Assembly (NCBI RefSeq): GCF_003124125.1
Contig: NZ_QCXQ01000002.1
Coordinates: 583,070 to 647,069, forward strand
Direction: 5' to 3'
DNA length: 64,000 bases
Origin: Levilactobacillus bambusae
Lineage (GTDB): Bacteria > Bacillota > Bacilli > Lactobacillales > Lactobacillaceae
The notes below the pieces were generated by a model. It was not told the DNA's origin. It saw nothing but the letters and a program-made list of their open reading frames with translations, and ran no database searches. Below, in pieces: positions 37,952 to 46,512 of this stretch. The first letter of the stretch is position 1, and the number at the start of each line of letters is the position of its first letter. The position numbers were made by a program, and so were the translations under genes.

Positions 37952-38289
37952 TTGACAGGTCCTGCTCCCCTGCTGTATGATAATGCCAACTTAAAAATCG
38001 TCCTTAAAACCGATGAAGTGGAGATCAAGATTATTGTGCCCGCACAGAGAGCCATCGTTGCTGAGAATATGGCCGAACGCAGATAGTTAAATGGACCACT
38101 GAGGGCTCTTCCGAAATGATGAAAGTACGAAGAGACGTGTGACATACGTCAGTTGTCAGGGGAATGTTGGTTCCCTGTGGAGTTGGAGGACGCCTAGAGT
38201 TCTTTTTAGTGGACTTAGGCGCCTCAATTAAGGTGGCACCGCGGTAAAAAACCGTCCTTAACGCATTGGCTGTTAAGGACGGTTTTTTT
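37952..38289 (+). ncRNA. T-box riboswitch leader, specifier read as TGG (Trp)
   Basis: A promoter TTGACA (37952-37957), an 18-base spacer and TATGAT (37976-37981) start a leader of about 300 bases. Stem I carries the AGAGA motif (38046-38050). The specifier context AAATGGACCACTGAGG (38089-38104) has the usual GAA-NNN-AYC form with codon TGG at 38092-38094. The T-box AAGGTGGCACCGCGG (38230-38244) is canonical. The terminator ACCGTCCTTAA...TTAAGGACGGTTTTTTT is at 38251-38289. Uncharged tRNA-Trp would stabilise the antiterminator. The T-box itself is certain; the specifier assignment is less so. Confidence 0.92.
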
Positions 38290-38386: not shown

Positions 38387-40027
38387 ATGAGTTTACTAAC
38401 AAACAAAAAGGTCTTATTACTAGGTGGATTAACCTTGGCAATCGGGATTGGCGTCGCTATTCACGCCACCAGCGCTCCCGCTCGAACATCGCAGGCTCAA
38501 ACCCTTAACCTATATGAAAGCACTAATTTAATTAGTCTGGATGCATCAAAAATTACGGATAGCGTTTCTAGCGCCCAACTTAGCCAGGTTGGCGAAGGAT
38601 TATACCGTTTGAATGCGGATAGTCAGCCCCAAAATGCCCTCGCAACTCATACAGCTGTCACCAATCAAGGGACAACCTATACCATTAATTTGCGGCACGA
38701 TGGCAAATGGAGTAACGGTCAGCCCGTCACTGCTTCCGACTTTGTTTATTCGTGGGAACGAACGTTAGACCCCAAAACCAAATCCGAATTCACCTATTTG
38801 TTTGCGAATATCCAAAACGCTAAAGCTATCGTTGCCGGTCAAAAACAGCCCCGGACCCTCGGCGTCCAAGCCACCGGAAAATTTCAATTACAAATTAATT
38901 TAACCAAACCGGTGCCCTACTTCAAAAAATTATTAGCCGGAACCACTTTTTACCCGCTGAATGAAACGGCGGTCAAGGAGTACGGTAAACGATATGGTAC
39001 TTCCGCTCAAACGACGGTGTATAATGGGCCCTTCAAATTAGTCGGCTGGAACGGGACCAACAATAATTGGCAGTTAACAAAGAACCCCGCTTACTGGGGT
39101 AAAAAAGCCGTTAAACTTCACCAAATTAACTACCAGGTCATCAAATCAGAATCGACAGCCTACAACCTCTACCAGTCTAACCAACTTGATATGGTAACCC
39201 TATCCGGGCAAGCCAACCTGCAAAATCAACATAATCCCAACCTAAAAACGTTACCGACGGGTCGCATTGGGTTTATTCAGTACAACCAAAAGGATAAACT
39301 AGCCGCCAATCAAAATTTAAGAACCGCGATTTCGCTAGCGATTAATCGGCAGCAGCTGGTTCATAATGTCTTGCAAGACGGATCCGTTGCTGCTTCCACT
39401 TTTGGCGTCCATCAAATGCTAAAGAACCCAAAATCCGGGCAAGATTTTGTGGCGGATACTAAGATCAGTCAAACAGCCAGCTATAACCTATCAGCTGCTC
39501 AAGCTCGGTTCAAACAGGCTCAAAGGGAATTGGGACATCACCAGCTAACCCTCACCATAACGTGCGGCGATGATGAAACCAGCCAAAAATTAGCAACGTT
39601 CATTCAGGGCCAACTGACTAGTCACCTCAGCGGTCTGCGAGTGACCATCCGCCCGATGCCGTTTACCGCCATGCTAACCAAAGTTTCTCAAGGCAACTTT
39701 CAGCTTAACCTAACAAGCTGGGGAATGGACTTTGCCGATCCCAGCCAGGCCCTTACTATCCTAACCTCTGATAGCAACTCAAATATGGGCCACTATTCCA
39801 GTCAGACCTATGATGCTGATATGGCTAAAGCCGATGGAAGCGACGCTAACAACGCCCCCGCTCGTTACCAAGACCTAATAACGGCCGAGAAGACCGCGTT
39901 AAAGGATCAAGCCGTTACCCCACTTTATGAGGGAGGATCCCATATTTTAGTTAAGCCAACCGTTCACGGTGTTGTATCCAATAAATTTAACGGAAATCTC
40001 GATTTCCGAACGGCCTATATGAAGTAG
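38387..40027 (+). CDS. Peptide ABC importer binding protein (OppA-like), orphan 2, without lipobox
   Basis: A 546-residue SBP_bac_5 protein. Motifs match the first OppA (INLRHDGKWSNGQPVTASDF, VYSWERTLDPKTKSEFTYLF, GMDFADPSQAL). The N-terminus has a hydrophobic helix (KKVLLLGGLTLAIGIGVAIH), but no Cys follows, so it is probably anchored by an uncleaved signal or released rather than lipidated. No permease or ATPase genes are adjacent. The upstream T-box ties expression to tRNA charging, likely Trp, so it may deliver Trp or Trp peptides to a shared Opp permease. Confidence 0.88.
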   Translation: MSLLTNKKVLLLGGLTLAIGIGVAIHATSAPARTSQAQTLNLYESTNLISLDASKITDSVSSAQLSQVGEGLYRLNADSQPQNALATHTAVTNQGTTYTINLRHDGKWSNGQPVTASDFVYSWERTLDPKTKSEFTYLFANIQNAKAIVAGQKQPRTLGVQATGKFQLQINLTKPVPYFKKLLAGTTFYPLNETAVKEYGKRYGTSAQTTVYNGPFKLVGWNGTNNNWQLTKNPAYWGKKAVKLHQINYQVIKSESTAYNLYQSNQLDMVTLSGQANLQNQHNPNLKTLPTGRIGFIQYNQKDKLAANQNLRTAISLAINRQQLVHNVLQDGSVAASTFGVHQMLKNPKSGQDFVADTKISQTASYNLSAAQARFKQAQRELGHHQLTLTITCGDDETSQKLATFIQGQLTSHLSGLRVTIRPMPFTAMLTKVSQGNFQLNLTSWGMDFADPSQALTILTSDSNSNMGHYSSQTYDADMAKADGSDANNAPARYQDLITAEKTALKDQAVTPLYEGGSHILVKPTVHGVVSNKFNGNLDFRTAYMK

Positions 40028-40103: not shown

Positions 40104-40655
40104 TTAAATCCCCAAATGGAATTGTTTCAACTTCATTTCCATTGTATCCTGCGTAATCCCAATGTATCGTCGGGTGGTTTTTTCGGATGCCTGGTTAAAA
40201 AGGGTCATCAGCGTTGTCAGATCCTGATTTTGGAGGTAGTAATGGTAGCCAAACGTTTTTCTTAGCGTTTGGATGCCAATATCGTTACGATGCAGAATCA
40301 CCGCAGTCCGCTGAAAAAGATTAGAAACCCCTTTGACGGTCAACCGGTTGCCCCGAATGCCCATAAATATTGGTTCATCCGGTTCCATCGTCTGAGTATA
40401 GTCCCAAATATCTGATCGGATATTTTTAAGGTAGAGCCAGCGTTTTCTGCCGGTCTTTTGCTCTGTAACTAGTGTTTGGTCCTTATTCCGAACGTCTTTA
40501 ACGTTTAGCGCTAAGAGATCGCTCATATTTAATCCAGTATTAATTCCCATTAAGACAATTAAACGATTTCGTTTTCCAAACTTCAACTGTGACACCGCGG
40601 AAATGAAATCCCTAATTTCTCTCTGGGTTCGTAGCGGTTCCACGTTATTATGCAT
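40104..40655 (-). CDS. Short tyrosine recombinase-like protein with altered catalytic residues
   Basis: A 183-residue protein equal to the catalytic domain of phage-type integrases, without an arm or core-binding domain. The usual TGLRxSEL reads TGLNMSDLL, so the first catalytic Arg is Asn. The Lys of QKTGRKRWL is present. The HxLRHTFA box reads IQTLRKTFGYH, and the nucleophile Tyr is present in TRRYIGI. It may be catalytically weak or act as a DNA-binding relic. No attachment repeats or cargo genes flank it. Confidence 0.75.
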   Translation of the reverse strand: MHNNVEPLRTQREIRDFISAVSQLKFGKRNRLIVLMGINTGLNMSDLLALNVKDVRNKDQTLVTEQKTGRKRWLYLKNIRSDIWDYTQTMEPDEPIFMGIRGNRLTVKGVSNLFQRTAVILHRNDIGIQTLRKTFGYHYYLQNQDLTTLMTLFNQASEKTTRRYIGITQDTMEMKLKQFHLGI

Positions 40656-41158: not shown

Positions 41159-42721
41159 TTATTTTCCCGTAATAACATGAAAATTAGTGGGCTGCTTAGC
41201 TATAACTGGGTCGTGGGTGGTGAAGTAGTCCGTAATCAGTTCACTCATATCCAGGTTAACTTCCCGGACTACTTTATCCACGCCAAACATGGGGTACTCG
41301 CCACCGCCATTGCCCCGGTATTGATTCATCGCTACCTGTAGGAGCTGATCTTCTTCCACGGGTTGACCGTGATAATCCAGTTGGTCGACTCGTGATCCCA
41401 CCGGGAGACGTAAGTCAAAGGTATAATCAATTCCCGAATAAAAGTCGTAGTTATAGTGCTGTACCTTGGGGTGAATAAAAGCATCGCCAACCGTCACTTG
41501 GCCATCCCGGCGTTCAAAATAACTTGCGCACCGTTCCAGGGCCGCCCGCAGCTCAGTTCCACTGATCTCCTCAACCACTAATGTATTCGGGTACACGTAG
41601 CTATTCAAAACTTGCCGGATGGTAACCGTTGATTGGTACCCCCTCACTTCATCATTAAAGAGTGCCGTTGCTGCAATATCCGTACCCGTTGCAGCCATTT
41701 GAACCCGATTAATAAAGTCCAGGTAGGGGTGTCCGGATAAACGCGCCAAAAACGGATTTTCCACCGTCATTTCGACACCGTTTACCCGGCCAAGCGGCTG
41801 ATCCAACCATTCCTGTACCCTGGCTTGCAGGTGGCCCGTTAACGAAATCAGGTTAACGGCTGGCGCCGCCGTCGCCGTTGACAGTAAGCTAGCAGTCGCC
41901 GTGACAACCGTTTTATCCTCTGCCAGTTCCAGGTCAATACATCCCACAAAACGTCCCCGATCCCCGGGTTGGGTAACGGGAACCCCGTGAACCACCGAAG
42001 CAAGCTGCTGGTGCTGATGACCGGTCACCAACGCATCAATACCTGGCACCTGATTCAAAATTCGCAGCCCCTCATTTTCTATGGTCAGCGGTTCGGCTAG
42101 TTCATCCGCTGCCAGATCACCTTCAAACCCACCGTGGTAAGCAACAACCACGACATCCGCAAGTTCCCTTAATTTTGGGACCCAACGTTTAGCCGTCGTC
42201 AGCGCCGATTCAAATGTTAAGCCAGTTAAATGATCCGCGCGTTCCCAGACTGGCACATACGCAGTTGTCAGACCTAAAATCGCAATTTTAACGCCCTGCT
42301 GGTCAATGATTTGGTAGGGGGCATCCACAATATGCTGATCTTTCCCACCTAAAATATTAGCCCCTAAAATTGGATAATTTCGGCCGCTTTCCCCCGCCCG
42401 CAAGTAATCTAACCCATAGTTAAACTCATGGTTACCAAGGATCCCAGCATCCATTGCCATGCGAGCGGTAATTTCCGTCATGATCCTCTGATCAGCAGGC
42501 GGCATTTTTTTTGCAACGTAGCTGGTTAGGGGCGAGCCCTGCAACCAATCGCCGTTTTCAATTGCAATGACCACCTCGTCATCAGCGGCCGTTGTTTTAA
42601 GCCGGTTAATAATCGTTGCCGCCTTTAACATCCCGTAATCCGTCACGTTATCGGGAGTACTGTAATTGGTAGGGTACAAGTATCCATGAACGTCACTCGT
42701 TGATAAAATTTTAATTTTCAT
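41159..42721 (-). CDS. Metallophosphoesterase/5'-nucleotidase (UshA-like)
   Basis: A 520-residue two-domain enzyme. The N-terminal calcineurin-like domain has STSDVHGYLYP, GDWLQGSP, GNHEFNYG, VVAYHGG and TGHQHQ, all metal ligands present. The C-terminal 5'-nucleotidase domain has GGGEYPMFG near the end. There is no signal peptide, so it acts in the cytoplasm, unlike periplasmic UshA. It would release phosphate and nucleosides from nucleotides or related phosphoesters. It is the last gene of the phn-like importer operon, two bases after the permease gene. Confidence 0.9.
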   Translation of the reverse strand: MKIKILSTSDVHGYLYPTNYSTPDNVTDYGMLKAATIINRLKTTAADDEVVIAIENGDWLQGSPLTSYVAKKMPPADQRIMTEITARMAMDAGILGNHEFNYGLDYLRAGESGRNYPILGANILGGKDQHIVDAPYQIIDQQGVKIAILGLTTAYVPVWERADHLTGLTFESALTTAKRWVPKLRELADVVVVAYHGGFEGDLAADELAEPLTIENEGLRILNQVPGIDALVTGHQHQQLASVVHGVPVTQPGDRGRFVGCIDLELAEDKTVVTATASLLSTATAAPAVNLISLTGHLQARVQEWLDQPLGRVNGVEMTVENPFLARLSGHPYLDFINRVQMAATGTDIAATALFNDEVRGYQSTVTIRQVLNSYVYPNTLVVEEISGTELRAALERCASYFERRDGQVTVGDAFIHPKVQHYNYDFYSGIDYTFDLRLPVGSRVDQLDYHGQPVEEDQLLQVAMNQYRGNGGGEYPMFGVDKVVREVNLDMSELITDYFTTHDPVIAKQPTNFHVITGK

Positions 42722-42723
42722 GG

Positions 42724-43533
42724 CTATACCAGCTTCTTTCGCAACTGACCAGAAAGACTGTCAATCATCAAAACCATAATGACAATCCCGAGTAGAATAA
42801 TTCCGACCCGCGGCCAGTTTCTGGTTTGGATGGCAAACAACATGGGGGTTCCTATTCCTCCGGCTCCTACCATCCCTAGAATCGTCGCTGAACGAACCGC
42901 TATCTCAAACCGGTATAGGGTATAGGAAATGAACTCAGGCATAATCGTTGGCAGCGTAGCCAGCATAAAAACCTGACTGGCGTTGCCACCCACACTCACG
43001 ATGGCCTCTTCGGCACCGTTATCCATGTTCTCGATGGCCTCGCTGAATAGCTTGCCCAGCATCCCGACAGAGTGAACACTGACTGCTAACACTCCCGCAT
43101 AGGATCCGGGACCAACCGCTTTAATGAACATAATAGCGAGCACAATCTCGGGAAACGTCCGAATCAGCGTCAGCACTAACTTGCCGCTACCAGAACGCAA
43201 GCGCCACTTCTCGTGACCGCCACGTGCCGCCCAGAAGGCAAACGGCACGCTAATAAACGCAGAGATAATGGTGCCTAAAAAGGCAATTGCGAGCGTTTGA
43301 AGAATTAAAGAAACTAAATCTTCACCACTACCGTTATACACGTAAGCCCAGTCCGGGTGAAAAATTCCCGCTAGAATCGACTTTGAAACGGATCCGGCGG
43401 AGGCTTGAATTCCGCTTAGTTTGAGGCCCTTTAGTGCCCAACCATAGACAACTAAAATGATTAGCGCCCAAACTAACCAGCCGTACCGGTCGTAATAACC
43501 CTTTTTAATTTCTAATTCAGGTGATTTTTCCAT
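42724..43533 (-). CDS. phnE: PhnE-type ABC permease 2
   Basis: A 269-residue permease of the PhnE family (BPD_transp_1). It has about six helices and the EAA-like coupling loop EAIENMDNGAEEAIVSVGGNASQVFMLATLP. It overlaps the preceding permease by one base, a tightly coupled arrangement. The two permeases are paralogues and likely form a heterodimer. Confidence 0.88.
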   Translation of the reverse strand: MEKSPELEIKKGYYDRYGWLVWALIILVVYGWALKGLKLSGIQASAGSVSKSILAGIFHPDWAYVYNGSGEDLVSLILQTLAIAFLGTIISAFISVPFAFWAARGGHEKWRLRSGSGKLVLTLIRTFPEIVLAIMFIKAVGPGSYAGVLAVSVHSVGMLGKLFSEAIENMDNGAEEAIVSVGGNASQVFMLATLPTIMPEFISYTLYRFEIAVRSATILGMVGAGGIGTPMLFAIQTRNWPRVGIILLGIVIMVLMIDSLSGQLRKKLV

Positions 43534-44330
43534 TAAACTAACCGCTCCCTCAAGTAATCGCTCAGAACATTAATAACTAGGACGACCACTAACGTCATGA
43601 TAATAATGGCGGCGGTCTGGCTATAATCAAATTCATTTAGCGACCGCTGGAGGTAAACCCCAATTCCGCCGGCCCCTAAATACCCTAACACCGTCGATGC
43701 CCGGACGTTAATTTCGAGCGTGTACAAAAAATAACTAATGAAGGGATTTAAAACCTGTGGCAGAACCGCCATGTGGACAACTTGCAGTTTATTCGCCCCG
43801 ACGGATTCCATGGCTTCAATGGGCCCATCATCAATGGTCTCAATCACTTCATAAAACAGCTTCGAAATCATCCCGAAGGAAAAGATAGCTAAGGTTACCA
43901 CCCCCGCCGTGGAACCAATCCCAAAAACAGCCACAAAGATTGCGGCTAATAGCAGATCCGGTAGCGTCCGAACTAAATCTAGAAAGAACCGCACCAATCC
44001 ATGCAGCCAGGAATTTTTAACGATATTACTTGCAGCTAGGAAGGCAAACGGAACCGCAAATAATGTTCCAATGGTGGTCCCAATAATCGCCATCTGGAGG
44101 GTTTCCAAAATCGGCTGCCAGATGATCGTAACGTAGGCCCAATCGGGGTGGGACATTCGTACCAGTAAATTAGTAAATTGATCAATATTGGTAAAGAACA
44201 TCGCCAGGTCCACCCCGGAGACTTGTGCGGATAAAAGGACCAAACCCACGGTTAGTAAAACTAGGCTGAGGGTTTTGATATGGTATTTCTGCCCCCACGA
44301 TTGGTGGGGCATCTTTGTCGTTATGTCCAT
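43533..44330 (-). CDS. phnE: PhnE-type ABC permease 1
   Basis: A 265-residue permease, paralogue of the next gene, with six helices and the coupling loop EVIETIDDGPIEAMESVGANKLQVVHMAVLP. GGAGG lies before the start. It sits nine bases after the ATPase gene. The family name comes from phosphonate import, but the transported molecule here may differ (see the PyrR attenuator). Confidence 0.88.
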   Translation of the reverse strand: MDITTKMPHQSWGQKYHIKTLSLVLLTVGLVLLSAQVSGVDLAMFFTNIDQFTNLLVRMSHPDWAYVTIIWQPILETLQMAIIGTTIGTLFAVPFAFLAASNIVKNSWLHGLVRFFLDLVRTLPDLLLAAIFVAVFGIGSTAGVVTLAIFSFGMISKLFYEVIETIDDGPIEAMESVGANKLQVVHMAVLPQVLNPFISYFLYTLEINVRASTVLGYLGAGGIGVYLQRSLNEFDYSQTAAIIIMTLVVVLVINVLSDYLRERLV

Positions 44331-44339
44331 AGTTTCCTC

Positions 44340-45092
44340 CTATACGGATTGATAAATCGCGTTCAAGTCCGACTCGGTTACCCGGTTAATGGGTTCATCG
44401 TAGACCAGCTGACCGGCTCGCATCCCCACAATTCGATCCGCATATTCTAAAGCCAATGGAACTGAATGCAGGTTTACCACCACCGTTATCCCATCCTCCT
44501 GGTTCAACTTTTTCAGGTCATTCATAACGGCCCGGGTCGTCAGCGGGTCTAACGAGGCAATGGGTTCATCGGCCAAAATAATCTTTGGGTCCTGCATTAA
44601 CGTGCGGGCAATCGCCACCCGTTGTTGCTGTCCGCCTGACAATTGATCCGCACGCATGTACAATTTTTCAAGCAGGTTCACCCGATCTAATGCTTCGGCC
44701 GCCTGCAGCTTATCCGCCTTGGTATAGAGGTTTAAAAGGCTTTTCCAGGTAGGGTAATAACTAATCTTGCCCGATAAGACGTTATGCTCAACGGTGGTTC
44801 GTTTGACCAAGTTAAAATTTTGAAAGATCATCCCAACCTTTCGTCGTAGTTCACGCAGCGCCCGGCCCTTTAAGTCGGTAACTTCAACGCCGTCTACGAG
44901 CACACTGCCAGAACTCGGGCGGTGCATTTGGTTAATGGTTCGCATCAGCGTACTTTTACCGGCACCTGATAAACCCACCACGACTAAAAACTCTCCGGGT
45001 TGGACGGTGAGATTAATATCTTTTAACCCAACTGTCCCATTGTCATAAATTTTATTAACGTCCTTAAACTCAATGATTGATTTGGCTTCCAT
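44340..45092 (-). CDS. phnC: PhnC-type ABC ATPase
   Basis: A 250-residue ATPase with Walker [10 protein letters not shown], signature [15 protein letters not shown] and Walker [13 protein letters not shown]. The start is the ATG at 45092, nine bases after GGAGGG; a longer frame has no site. A terminator-like hairpin separates it from the binding-protein gene. Confidence 0.92.
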
Positions 45093-45179: not shown

Positions 45180-46127
45180 TTATTTATCTAATTGTGCCGC
45201 TTCCTTATCGTACTTCCGAATGATATCGAAATTACTATCCTTGGAGTCGACGTAACCTTCATGACTGTAAACGCTAGAAATAATTTGGTGACCCTTCTTC
45301 GTCTTCGCGATGTCCTTAAAGGCCTTCGAGATCTTCTTTTGCCACTTCGAACTCATATCACCACGAACGGTAATTGTGTCATTAGGGATCTTAGCCGTGG
45401 TATAAATTGGGACCACCTTTTGCATAATGTCCGGTTCATCCTTCAGAACTAACTTCCGGGCTCCCTGGAAGACAAAGGCGGCATCGGTATTCTTGTTGTA
45501 AACCGACAGAACCCCTTGGTCATGCCCCTTAACCTGAACGGTCTTAATTCCATCCTTATTGATATTGACACCATGGTTCAACATTTCGACTGCGGGATAA
45601 ATCCAGCCAGCGGTTGACGTCGTATCCTGTGTAGCAATGGTCTTATTCTTAAGATCCTGGATGTTCTTAATCCCACTGTCCTTGCGCACTAAAATTTGTG
45701 ATCGGTAGTAGTCCACTAACTTCTTAGTCGATTGATCATTCGGTTCCTTGACACCATAACGTTCGGCTTGGAGGAGCACCTTCGCGTTATATTGCTTGTG
45801 CGCCAACACGTAAGCATCAGGTGGTAAATAACCAACGTCAACCTTCTTAGAACCCATCGCTTCAACGATCGTGTTGTAGTCTGTAGACACCGCAACCTTA
45901 ACCGGGATCCCCAGTTCCTTCTTTAACAGACCTTCTAACGGCTTCGCCTTCGCTTCAATCGTTCCGGCATTTGACGACGGAACAAATTCAACCGTTAACT
46001 GCTTAGGCGTGTAATCGTGACTCTTCTTGCTTGAACTAGCGGTTTTCCCACATCCCGCTAAACCAACGGCCAGTAACATGATCGAAGCAGCCGCAATTTT
46101 GTACTTCCCATGGTGTTCGAATTTCAT
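45180..46127 (-). CDS. phnD: PhnD-type phosphate/phosphonate-binding lipoprotein
   Basis: A 315-residue binding lipoprotein (PF12974) with lipobox LAGC (Cys26). Family motifs: LTVEFVPSSNAGTIEAKAKP, VGYLPPDAYVLAHKQYNAKV and DTTSTAGWIYPAVEML, where the Ser/Thr pair usually binds the phosphate-like group. It is the first gene of a phnDCEE-nucleotidase operon whose leader carries a PyrR-type attenuator, so a pyrimidine nucleotide or phosphorylated nucleoside is a possible ligand. Confidence 0.9.
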   Translation of the reverse strand: MKFEHHGKYKIAAASIMLLAVGLAGCGKTASSSKKSHDYTPKQLTVEFVPSSNAGTIEAKAKPLEGLLKKELGIPVKVAVSTDYNTIVEAMGSKKVDVGYLPPDAYVLAHKQYNAKVLLQAERYGVKEPNDQSTKKLVDYYRSQILVRKDSGIKNIQDLKNKTIATQDTTSTAGWIYPAVEMLNHGVNINKDGIKTVQVKGHDQGVLSVYNKNTDAAFVFQGARKLVLKDEPDIMQKVVPIYTTAKIPNDTITVRGDMSSKWQKKISKAFKDIAKTKKGHQIISSVYSHEGYVDSKDSNFDIIRKYDKEAAQLDK

Positions 46128-46183
46128 CAGTTGGTTCCTCCCAAAATAATAGTCGTTCGTGATTCACCATCATCTTATCGCAT

Positions 46184-46288
46184 AAACACGAACTTAGTCA
46201 ACTTTGTTTTTTATAATGTTTGTTATATATAAAAATATTGATATTTTTACCTTATTTTTACACGTTTAATACATTAAATACGAACTAT
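46184..46288. promoter_or_regulatory. PurBox-like motifs upstream of the phnD-type gene
   Basis: AAACACGAACTTA (46184-46196) and AAATACGAACTAT (46276-46288) resemble the PurBox-like sites at 2408-2506; an inverted ACGAAC core also lies at 46155-46160. They are in the AT-rich stretch between the attenuator terminator and the phnD start. The similarity may point to a shared regulator, but the matches are short. Confidence 0.35.
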
Positions 46289-46304
46289 ATGTAAAATGAT
46301 AAAT

Positions 46305-46420
46305 AAAAAAGCCTCCCGGTAAATTGACCGGAAGGCTAGCTTTTAGGTGGTTTAAAATCTACGGCCCAGTGAAAAAGGGCGTAGTCATTAAAACATCCGA
46401 CTTGCTAGCCTCACGGGACT
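46305..46420 (-). promoter_or_regulatory. PyrR-type RNA attenuator
   Basis: Reading the minus strand: AGTCCCGTGAGGCTAGCAAG (46401-46420) matches the PyrR-binding loop consensus ARUCCNGNGAGGYUNGMAAG throughout. Its AGGCTAGC pairs exactly with GCTAGCCT (46333-46340), which overlaps the 5' arm of a terminator (46305-46337, AGCCT.CCGGT/ACCGG.AGGCT then six T). This is the classic switch: PyrR plus UMP would hold the loop and allow termination; without it the antiterminator forms. The next gene downstream is the phnD-type lipoprotein. Confidence 0.75.
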
Positions 46421-46512
46421 AATTTAAAGTGACGTTCTTCGATTTAATTGTTAACTCATCCTAACATGGATGGCTGATTCTGACTAGGTCTAATTTCTTA
46501 TTGTTCATTAAC

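What the first reader, a model, noticed from the sequence alone, without database searches (positions are those of the whole stretch)
46305..46420. PyrR-type attenuator ahead of a 'phosphonate' importer and nucleotidase
Seen: a PyrR-loop consensus (AGTCCCGTGAGGCTAGCAAG), a terminator, and exact pairing between AGGCTAGC in the loop and GCTAGCCT over the terminator's 5' arm. The genes controlled are phnD-, phnC- and two phnE-type genes plus a cytoplasmic 5'-nucleotidase. Known: PyrR attenuators control pyrimidine synthesis and uptake by UMP level. Inference: this importer takes up pyrimidine nucleotides or phosphorylated nucleosides, which the nucleotidase then dephosphorylates. The annotation 'phosphonate' would be misleading.
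Basis: partly seen in the sequence, partly recalled or inferred. Interest (0 to 1): 0.88.

Follow-up and report, generated by a model that had tools for sequence, protein, structure and literature searches.

The report
Nucleotide-scavenging importer under dual nucleotide control
A bacterial gene cluster labelled as a phosphonate importer carries an RNA switch normally used to sense pyrimidines and a likely purine-controlled promoter behind it, and most probably scavenges nucleotides rather than phosphonates.

Summary
Confirmed: a PyrR attenuator (RF00515, 54.2 bits, cut-off 54) lies at 46302-46434, minus strand. The genome has pyrR and three other RF00515 matches (one over, two under the cut-off), all ahead of nucleobase or pyrimidine genes. 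Such pairs (at most 1 mismatch) occur ahead of phnD in 21 of 80 loci, against 0 of 80 control stretches; a promoter containing GTTCG stands there in 25 of 80, against 0.1 in shuffles. The genome has purR and no purE match. The PyrR leader is a rare addition: 0 of 24 named Levilactobacillus loci, but three Lentilactobacillus genomes, with whose operons this one groups. phnD-C-E-E-nucleotidase order holds in 54 of 80 named loci; in Furfurilactobacillus a nucleoside hydrolase stands instead. PhnJ is absent from 301 of 301 family genomes. A Lactococcus study links a phn-cpdC operon with purine genes. Best reading: a nucleotide or phosphorylated-nucleoside importer with stacked PyrR and PurR control. 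The ligand is untested; phosphonate-pocket residues are largely kept.

The parts
46458..46486 (-). Likely promoter P1 of the attenuator transcript: TAGTCA-17-TAGGAT with extended -10 TG
   Evidence: Read; same spacing and TGnTAGGWT in L105, L106, L107 (the -35 is TAGTCA in L107, TACCCA in L105/L106). Not found by the consensus scan, so inferred from conservation.
46302..46434 (-). PyrR attenuator leader (RF00515)
   Evidence: 54.2 bits, cut-off 54
46401..46420 (-). PyrR-binding loop consensus AGTCCCGTGAGGCTAGCAAG in the anti-antiterminator
   Evidence: alignment
46404..46411 (-). 5' strand of the antiterminator (AGGCTAGC)
46333..46340 (-). 3' strand of the antiterminator (GCTAGCCT), overlapping the terminator 5' arm
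46310..46337 (-). Intrinsic terminator stem-loop
   Evidence: about -19.5 kcal/mol
46188..46223 (-). PurBox-like pair ACAAAC-N24-GTTCGT
   Evidence: (G000:C10:629257-629292)
46172..46201 (-). Promoter P2 directly ahead of phnD: TTGACT-18-TAAGAT
   Evidence: a promoter at this place with GTTCG inside in 25 of 80 loci, shuffles 0.1
45180..46127 (-). phnD-type substrate-binding lipoprotein
   Evidence: PF12974 2.8e-56; lipobox LAGC read; AF2 pLDDT 87.9
44340..45092 (-). phnC-type ATPase (start inferred from relatives)
   Evidence: TIGR02315 344.1 bits, cut-off 266.1
43533..44330 (-). phnE-type permease 1
   Evidence: TIGR01097 295.7 bits, cut-off 216.7
42724..43533 (-). phnE-type permease 2
   Evidence: TIGR01097 250.7 bits, cut-off 216.7
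41159..42721 (-). Probably cytoplasmic metallophosphatase/5'-nucleotidase-family enzyme
   Evidence: PF02872 4.1e-24 and PF00149 8e-9; begins MKIKILSTSDVHG, no signal peptide by eye; nearest solved 3qfk/4q7f

Best explanation
The operon encodes a binding-protein-dependent ABC importer for nucleotides or other phosphorylated nucleosides, plus a cytoplasmic phosphatase that removes the phosphate so that nucleoside and base can be salvaged. It has two tandem promoters. P1 makes a transcript that runs through a PyrR attenuator: with UMP high, PyrR holds the anti-antiterminator, the terminator forms, and transcription stops about 100 bases before P2; with UMP low, the antiterminator forms and transcription runs into phnD. 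P2, directly ahead of phnD, carries a PurBox-like pair whose downstream half lies between its -35 and -10, and is probably controlled by PurR, the PRPP-sensing purine regulator. Expression is thus raised when either pyrimidines or purines run short. Shown by sequence: attenuator, mutually exclusive helices, P2 and the box pair, pyrR and purR genes, gene order. Inferred: binding by PyrR and PurR, direction of PurR control, strength of both promoters, and substrate.
For: PyrR leader. The other three RF00515 matches of the genome (59, 44.4, 41.1 bits) precede a uracil-permease-like NCS2 gene, an NCS1-type permease and pyrR-pyrB. Box pair with at most 1 mismatch ahead of phnD in 21 of 80 loci (20 of the 21 at 88-120 bases before the start) against 0 of 80 far-upstream stretches and 0.2 of 80 in shuffles. 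Promoter at -110 to -50 in 52 of 80 (shuffles 10.05), with GTTCG inside in 25 of 80 (shuffles 0.1). Spacing N24-25 puts the CGAA/TTCG centres 30-31 bases apart, the B. subtilis PurBox geometry (14-bp boxes, 16-17 bp spacer; PMC8789054 passages). PurR gene present; no purE match. phnD-C-E1-E2-N order in 54 of 80 named loci. Nucleoside hydrolase directly after phnE2 in four Furfurilactobacillus loci and one MAG. PhnJ in 0 of 301 family genomes. L. lactis: a phnB-phnC-llmg_0315-cpdC operon linked with pur genes and pbuO in a regulatory network built from expression data (PMC3547956 passages). The binding-protein family includes a glycerol-phosphate binder (PMC12718374 passages) and, by entry title only, XAC2383 bound to ATP (5ub7).
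Against: No ligand, binding or expression test. Pocket residues of E. coli PhnD are kept: the Ser of the S-T-S/A motif in 27 of 27, the His157 equivalent in 24 of 27, and the Asp205 equivalent, which holds the amine of 2AEP, in 27 of 27. The Rfam score barely clears its cut-off; the two L. senioris leaders fall below it (49.8 and 41.8 bits), and one has a weakened terminator (-6.2 kcal/mol). The window's upstream half-box has one mismatch. The 80 loci are related species, so counts are not independent. In the whole genome the box pattern alone is not clearly enriched: 8 sites against 1 (N24) but 3 against 6 (N25) in the reversed control. Ahead of purE in eight Levilactobacillus genomes the pair has 2-4 mismatches. 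24 of 80 loci show the transporter without the nucleotidase (L179 has only 127 bases after phnE2).
Confidence: 0.6

Rival explanations
1. The importer carries a related but different compound of nucleic-acid breakdown (2',3'-cyclic or 3'-nucleotide, plain nucleoside, or a sugar phosphate) and the enzyme is a CpdB-type phosphodiesterase/3'-nucleotidase rather than a 5'-nucleotidase.
For: The best NCBIfam profiles of the enzyme are 2',3'-cyclic-nucleotide 2'-phosphodiesterase/3'-nucleotidases (E 2.5e-63); the Lactococcus operon contains cpdC; a cyclic-nucleotide phosphodiesterase-type gene lies 172 bases after phnE2 in Lacticaseibacillus suilingensis.
Against: All those NCBIfam scores are far below their cut-offs (best 214.5 against 486), and the closest solved relatives are named 'uncharacterized protein' and '5' nucleotidase family protein', so specificity is open.
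Confidence: 0.2
2. It is a phosphonate, phosphite or phosphate-ester importer for phosphorus supply, as annotated; the nucleotide regulators were recruited for another reason.
For: PhnC and both PhnE score above the equivalog cut-offs; the nearest folds are PtxB with phosphite and phosphonate, ArrX and PhnD; pocket residues are largely kept.
Against: PhnD itself is far below the PhnD equivalog cut-off (155.4 against 261.1); no PhnJ in 301 genomes (PhnX and other phosphonate enzymes were not searched); nucleotide enzymes and nucleotide-type regulation at the locus.
Confidence: 0.15
3. The PyrR leader is a transferred or decaying relic with little effect: P2 drives the operon, and P1 read-through is minor.
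For: The leader lies wholly upstream of P2; among the loci scanned only this one and three relatives carry it; one L. senioris copy has a weakened terminator.
Against: P1 extended -10, loop, antiterminator and terminator are all kept in the window, L. kribbianus and L. senioris DSM 24302 while many bases between have diverged.
Confidence: 0.15

Closest known systems
PyrR attenuators of pyr operons and uracil permeases (RF00515)
   Same: Loop consensus, anti-antiterminator, antiterminator and terminator; PyrR gene in the genome
   Different: Ahead of an ABC importer plus phosphatase of the phosphonate type, and followed by a separate promoter for the same genes
PurR regulon with paired PurBoxes (B. 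subtilis, Lactococcus)
   Same: CGAA/TTCG half-sites 30-31 bases apart beside a promoter; PurR present
   Different: Target is a Phn-type importer; one half-site has a mismatch in the window; the downstream half lies inside the promoter, whereas at the B. subtilis pur operon the boxes lie just upstream of -35 (PMC8789054 passages)
Lactococcus lactis phnB-phnC-llmg_0315-cpdC operon
   Same: Phn-type transporter genes with a gene named cpdC, linked to pur genes (PMC3547956 passages)
   Different: No PyrR attenuator was mentioned for it in the passages read; its sequences were not compared here
PhnT-family binding proteins PtxB, PhnD, HtxB, GpxB
   Same: Fold, and most phosphorus head-binding residues
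   Different: About 18-25% identity; operon partners and regulators concern nucleotides

Membership tests
PyrR attenuator | Score over the Rfam RF00515 gathering cut-off | tested here: met
   54.2 against 54; narrow margin
PyrR attenuator | Conserved loop in an anti-antiterminator, with an antiterminator exclusive of the terminator | tested here: met
PyrR attenuator | PyrR protein encoded in the genome | tested here: met
   NF003548 267.9 bits, cut-off 218
PyrR attenuator | Terminator controls the only transcript into the gene | tested here: not met
   P2 lies between terminator and phnD; this limits how far PyrR controls the genes, not what the leader is
PyrR attenuator | UMP-dependent termination | not testable with these tools
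   needs a transcription assay
PurR regulon | PurR encoded in the genome | tested here: met
   PF09182 105.2 bits, cut-off 24.6
PurR regulon | Paired inverted half-sites with central CGAA at the known spacing | tested here: met
   1 mismatch in 12 at N24 in the window; 21 of 80 loci at most 1 mismatch
PurR regulon | The same pair at known pur genes of the group | tested here: inconclusive
   8 purE loci of the genus: 2 mismatches in 4, 3 in 2, 4 in 2; own genome has no purE match
PurR regulon | PurR binding and PRPP response | not testable with these tools
   needs EMSA and reporter
Phosphonate importer PhnCDE | PhnC and PhnE equivalog profiles | tested here: met
Phosphonate importer PhnCDE | PhnD equivalog profile TIGR03431 over cut-off | tested here: not met
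   155.4 against 261.1; the broader subfamily TIGR01098 is met (238.8 against 112.05)
Phosphonate importer PhnCDE | C-P lyase PhnJ in the genome | tested here: not met
   0 of 301 family genomes, own included
Phosphonate importer PhnCDE | Phosphonate binding | not testable with these tools
   pocket residues largely kept
Cytoplasmic 5'-nucleotidase | Metallophos plus 5_nucleotid_C domains, no signal peptide | tested here: met
   signal peptide judged by eye
Cytoplasmic 5'-nucleotidase | Specificity for 5'-nucleotides | not testable with these tools
   no NCBIfam model listed reached its cut-off

The most novel reading that the evidence does not exclude
The PhnD-C-E-E-nucleotidase operon found across Lactobacillaceae is a binding-protein-dependent importer of intact nucleotides (5'-, 3'- or 2',3'-cyclic), a transport ability for which I recall no defined system in these bacteria. 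In this species and three Lentilactobacillus genomes it reads both nucleotide pools through stacked PyrR and PurR control.
Probability: 0.42. Interest if true: 0.75.

Novelty: new variant of a known kind. Interest (0 to 1): 0.55.

Why it matters
Importers of this type bear the name phosphonate transporter in the profile libraries used for annotation. Relatives of this PhnD occur in 120 of 301 family genomes sampled. If the family moves nucleotides or their breakdown products, that name is wrong for many lactic acid bacteria, and how such purine-dependent food bacteria obtain nucleotides becomes directly testable. Stacked PyrR and PurR control would show one salvage system reading both nucleotide pools.

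Tried and rejected
Chance match: rejected by the genome-level E-value, four related leaders with kept parts, and a pyrR gene. A leader shared by the whole importer family: rejected; of 30 phnD loci of family genomes scanned with Rfam (L020-L048 and L208) 3 show RF00515 (L020, L021, L022) and 27 do not, and 3 of 80 named loci carry the loop motif (L169 has almost no upstream sequence). Eight other named loci gave no nucleotide-type element over the Rfam cut-offs (two tRNAs, one L21 leader). A plain CGAAC-N22-26-GTTCG genome scan gave 16 sites against 7 in the reversed control; the stricter N24 and N25 scans together give 11 against 7. I looked at genes only at four chosen sites (L099, L198, L203, L207), so the two that support the reading (L099, L207) are selected; L198 and L203 showed no link to nucleotides. 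Literature: ten searches ran in the open-licence library; none of the titles and abstract openings listed names PyrR control of a Phn importer, and searches returned no paper. Of PMC3616900 I saw term passages and section 16, of PMC3766115 term passages; a term count gave 0 for 'phosphonate' and 'phn' in both main texts. Of PMC6377658 and PMC13328217 I saw term passages, which did not bear on the importer. Supplements were not open to me and RegPrecise was not consulted. Purine auxotrophy: of the 30 Levilactobacillus genomes common, phnD is missing in 3 of 8 with a strong purE match (E below 1e-60) and in 2 of 22 without; too few to conclude.

Full report
What is there. The window lies in a Levilactobacillus genome: genomes returned as the same genus have contigs of the same number and length as named Levilactobacillus records (for example 354750 and 40820 bases); the species itself is not named. 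On the minus strand stand phnD (45180-46127), phnC (44340-45092), two phnE (43533-44330, 42724-43533) and a metallophosphatase with Metallophos and 5_nucleotid_C domains (41159-42721). The enzyme starts MKIKILSTSDVHG with no signal peptide by eye, so it is probably cytoplasmic; PhnD has a lipobox (LAGC). Ahead of phnD, 46302-46434 matches the Rfam PyrR family at 54.2 bits against a cut-off of 54. The leader folds better than all 200 shuffles (z -3.72).

PyrR context. The genome holds four RF00515 matches, two over the curated cut-off (59 and 54.2 bits) and two under it (44.4 and 41.1). The other three stand ahead of an NCS2 permease (59 bits; NCBIfam uracil permease 458.7 bits, just under its cut-off of 477), an NCS1-type permease (44.4) and pyrR followed by pyrB (41.1). 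pyrR is confirmed by an NCBIfam equivalog (267.9 bits, cut-off 218), and pyrB, pyrC, pyrD and pyrF follow it, each over its cut-off. PyrR leaders are common in the family: 270 of 301 genomes have a match at E 0.01 or better, 164 of 301 over the cut-off (its list of places is capped).

The second promoter. Between the terminator and phnD lies TTGACT-18-TAAGAT at 46201-46172, one of two promoter-like matches in 800 bases (the other, 46323-46296, runs from the terminator); shuffles give 2.0, so in this one sequence it proves nothing. Comparison does: a promoter by the same rule stands 50-110 bases before phnD in 52 of 80 loci, against 10.05 in dinucleotide shuffles, and it encloses GTTCG in 25 of 80, against 0.1. 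The window's P2 overlaps ACAAAC-N24-GTTCGT (46223-46188). In the same 80 upstream stretches (79 named loci plus the window; L169 was dropped for lack of upstream sequence), the best pair ACGAAC-N22-26-GTTCGT has at most 1 mismatch of 12 in 21, against 0 of 80 in stretches 400-650 bases upstream and a mean of 0.2 of 80 in shuffles; at most 2 mismatches in 42, against 5 and about 3. Of the 21, 20 lie 88-120 bases before phnD. These loci are related species, so the counts are not independent.

Why PurR. The half-site centres are 30-31 bases apart, which is the spacing of B. subtilis PurBoxes (central CGAA, 14-bp boxes, 16-17 bp spacer; passages of PMC8789054). The PurBox consensus AWWWCCGAACWWT is quoted in PMC3547956 (passages). 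The genome has PurR, no purE match at 99.72% completeness, and AAATCCGAACATT, a full match to that consensus, ahead of its purR. Similar pairs lie between an NCS2 permease gene and a divergent gene (L099, CGAAC-N24-GTTCG) and about 20 bases ahead of a nucleoside hydrolase gene (L207). These two are selected examples: in the whole genome the N24 and N25 patterns give 11 sites against 7 in the reversed control. Ahead of purE in eight Levilactobacillus genomes the pair is degenerate, with 2 to 4 mismatches. PurR control is therefore likely but not settled.

Consequence for the mechanism. The terminator ends about 100 bases before the -35 of P2, and P2 should start its transcript about 40 bases before phnD (inferred from the -10). 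A PyrR-UMP stop would end P1 transcripts only. The attenuator transcript has its own likely promoter, TAGTCA-17-TAGGAT with an extended -10 TG; spacing and TGnTAGGWT are kept in the three Lentilactobacillus loci although the surrounding bases have changed. The logic is most simply additive: P1 opens when UMP is low, P2 when PurR lets go. Whether bound PurR blocks P1 transcripts is unknown.

Distribution. phnD relatives (E 1e-20 or better) occur in 120 of 301 family genomes, and in 31 of 36 Levilactobacillus genomes at E 1e-50 (own included). Of 80 named loci the PyrR loop motif stands ahead of phnD in 3: Lentilactobacillus senioris (two genomes) and L. kribbianus. None of the 24 loci named Levilactobacillus has it. 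Rfam agrees, lenient threshold included. In a tree of the five concatenated proteins (52 of the 63 loci L105-L167, those with all five, plus the window) the window groups with those three (support 1.0), nearest L. kribbianus (0.956), at 82% identity, against at most 72.1% to Levilactobacillus. The leader thus arose once or moved with the operon. Transfer between the genera is likely: none of seven flanking proteins of the window matches the three Lentilactobacillus loci, and a phage-integrase-family gene follows the operon. The direction is open. The L. senioris YQ005 copy has a weakened terminator (-6.2 against -13.8 kcal/mol in the other strain).

Substrate, for nucleotides. phnD-C-E1-E2-nucleotidase order holds in 54 of 80 named loci; 24 show the four transporter genes without it and 2 are truncated. 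Of the 24, L179 has only 127 bases after phnE2 and so tests nothing. In four Furfurilactobacillus loci (L160-L163) and one MAG (L159) a nucleoside hydrolase, 54-56% identical to the window genome's own one, follows phnE2 directly (Pfam was run on L160 and L163). In Lacticaseibacillus suilingensis the next gene, 172 bases on, is a cyclic-nucleotide phosphodiesterase-type protein; other loci without the nucleotidase that I looked at (13 of 24) mostly show genes with no evident link. PhnJ of C-P lyase is absent from 301 of 301 family genomes, with E. coli as positive control; other phosphonate-degrading enzymes were not searched. [quoted passage not shown] This is independent published support for the purine link, and it lowers the novelty.

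Substrate, against. The predicted PhnD structure (pLDDT 87.9) is nearest PtxB, ArrX and E. coli PhnD. The Ser of the S-T-S/A motif is kept in 27 of 27 aligned proteins, the next position is Thr or Ser in 21 of 27, the equivalent of His157 is His in 24 of 27, and of Asp205 Asp in 27 of 27; the equivalent of Glu177 is Gly in 14 of 27, the window included, and Asp in 11 (roles of Glu177/Asp205 and of a conserved His and Ser from PMC12718374 passages; that this Ser is residue 127 is recalled). So a small phosphonate is not excluded. That the family can change substrate is shown by GpxB, which binds glycerol phosphates (PMC12718374), and by an entry title stating ATP bound to XAC2383 (5ub7; paper not seen). 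The enzyme's specificity is open: its best NCBIfam profiles are 2',3'-cyclic phosphodiesterase/3'-nucleotidases, below cut-off, and its nearest solved relatives are 3qfk/4q7f.

Verdict. The PyrR leader is a new member of a known kind; the stacked arrangement on this importer is a new variant. I saw no description of it in the searches listed under Tried and rejected, which cover open-licence papers only.

Noticed in passing
window 38004-38262 (+): T-box leader (94.8 bits, cut-off 93) ahead of an oligopeptide-type binding protein (38387-40027, PF00496).
   Followed up: no
window 40104-40655 (-): Phage-integrase-family gene (PF00589, 183 aa) next after the nucleotidase; possible trace of mobility.
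   Followed up: partly
L108, L109, L110, L118, L125, about 160 bases before phnD: Inverted repeat AGGTTTTACGKTTTACCT in 5 of 80 named loci (all Levilactobacillus), a possible further operator.
   Followed up: no
L078 1398-5822; L150 3159-6451: Tandem arrays of four and three phnD genes ahead of one phnC-E-E set, suggesting several ligands for one importer.
   Followed up: no
L087 1152-2764: A phnD-like gene (37% identical) followed by a nucleotidase-like stretch (30%) with no phnC/E detected.
   Followed up: no
L207 1501-1537: PurBox-like pair (1 mismatch, N25) about 20 bases ahead of a nucleoside hydrolase gene in the window's own genome.
   Followed up: partly
L106 7705-7825: Natural copy of the phn PyrR leader with a shortened, weaker terminator in L. 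senioris YQ005.
   Followed up: partly
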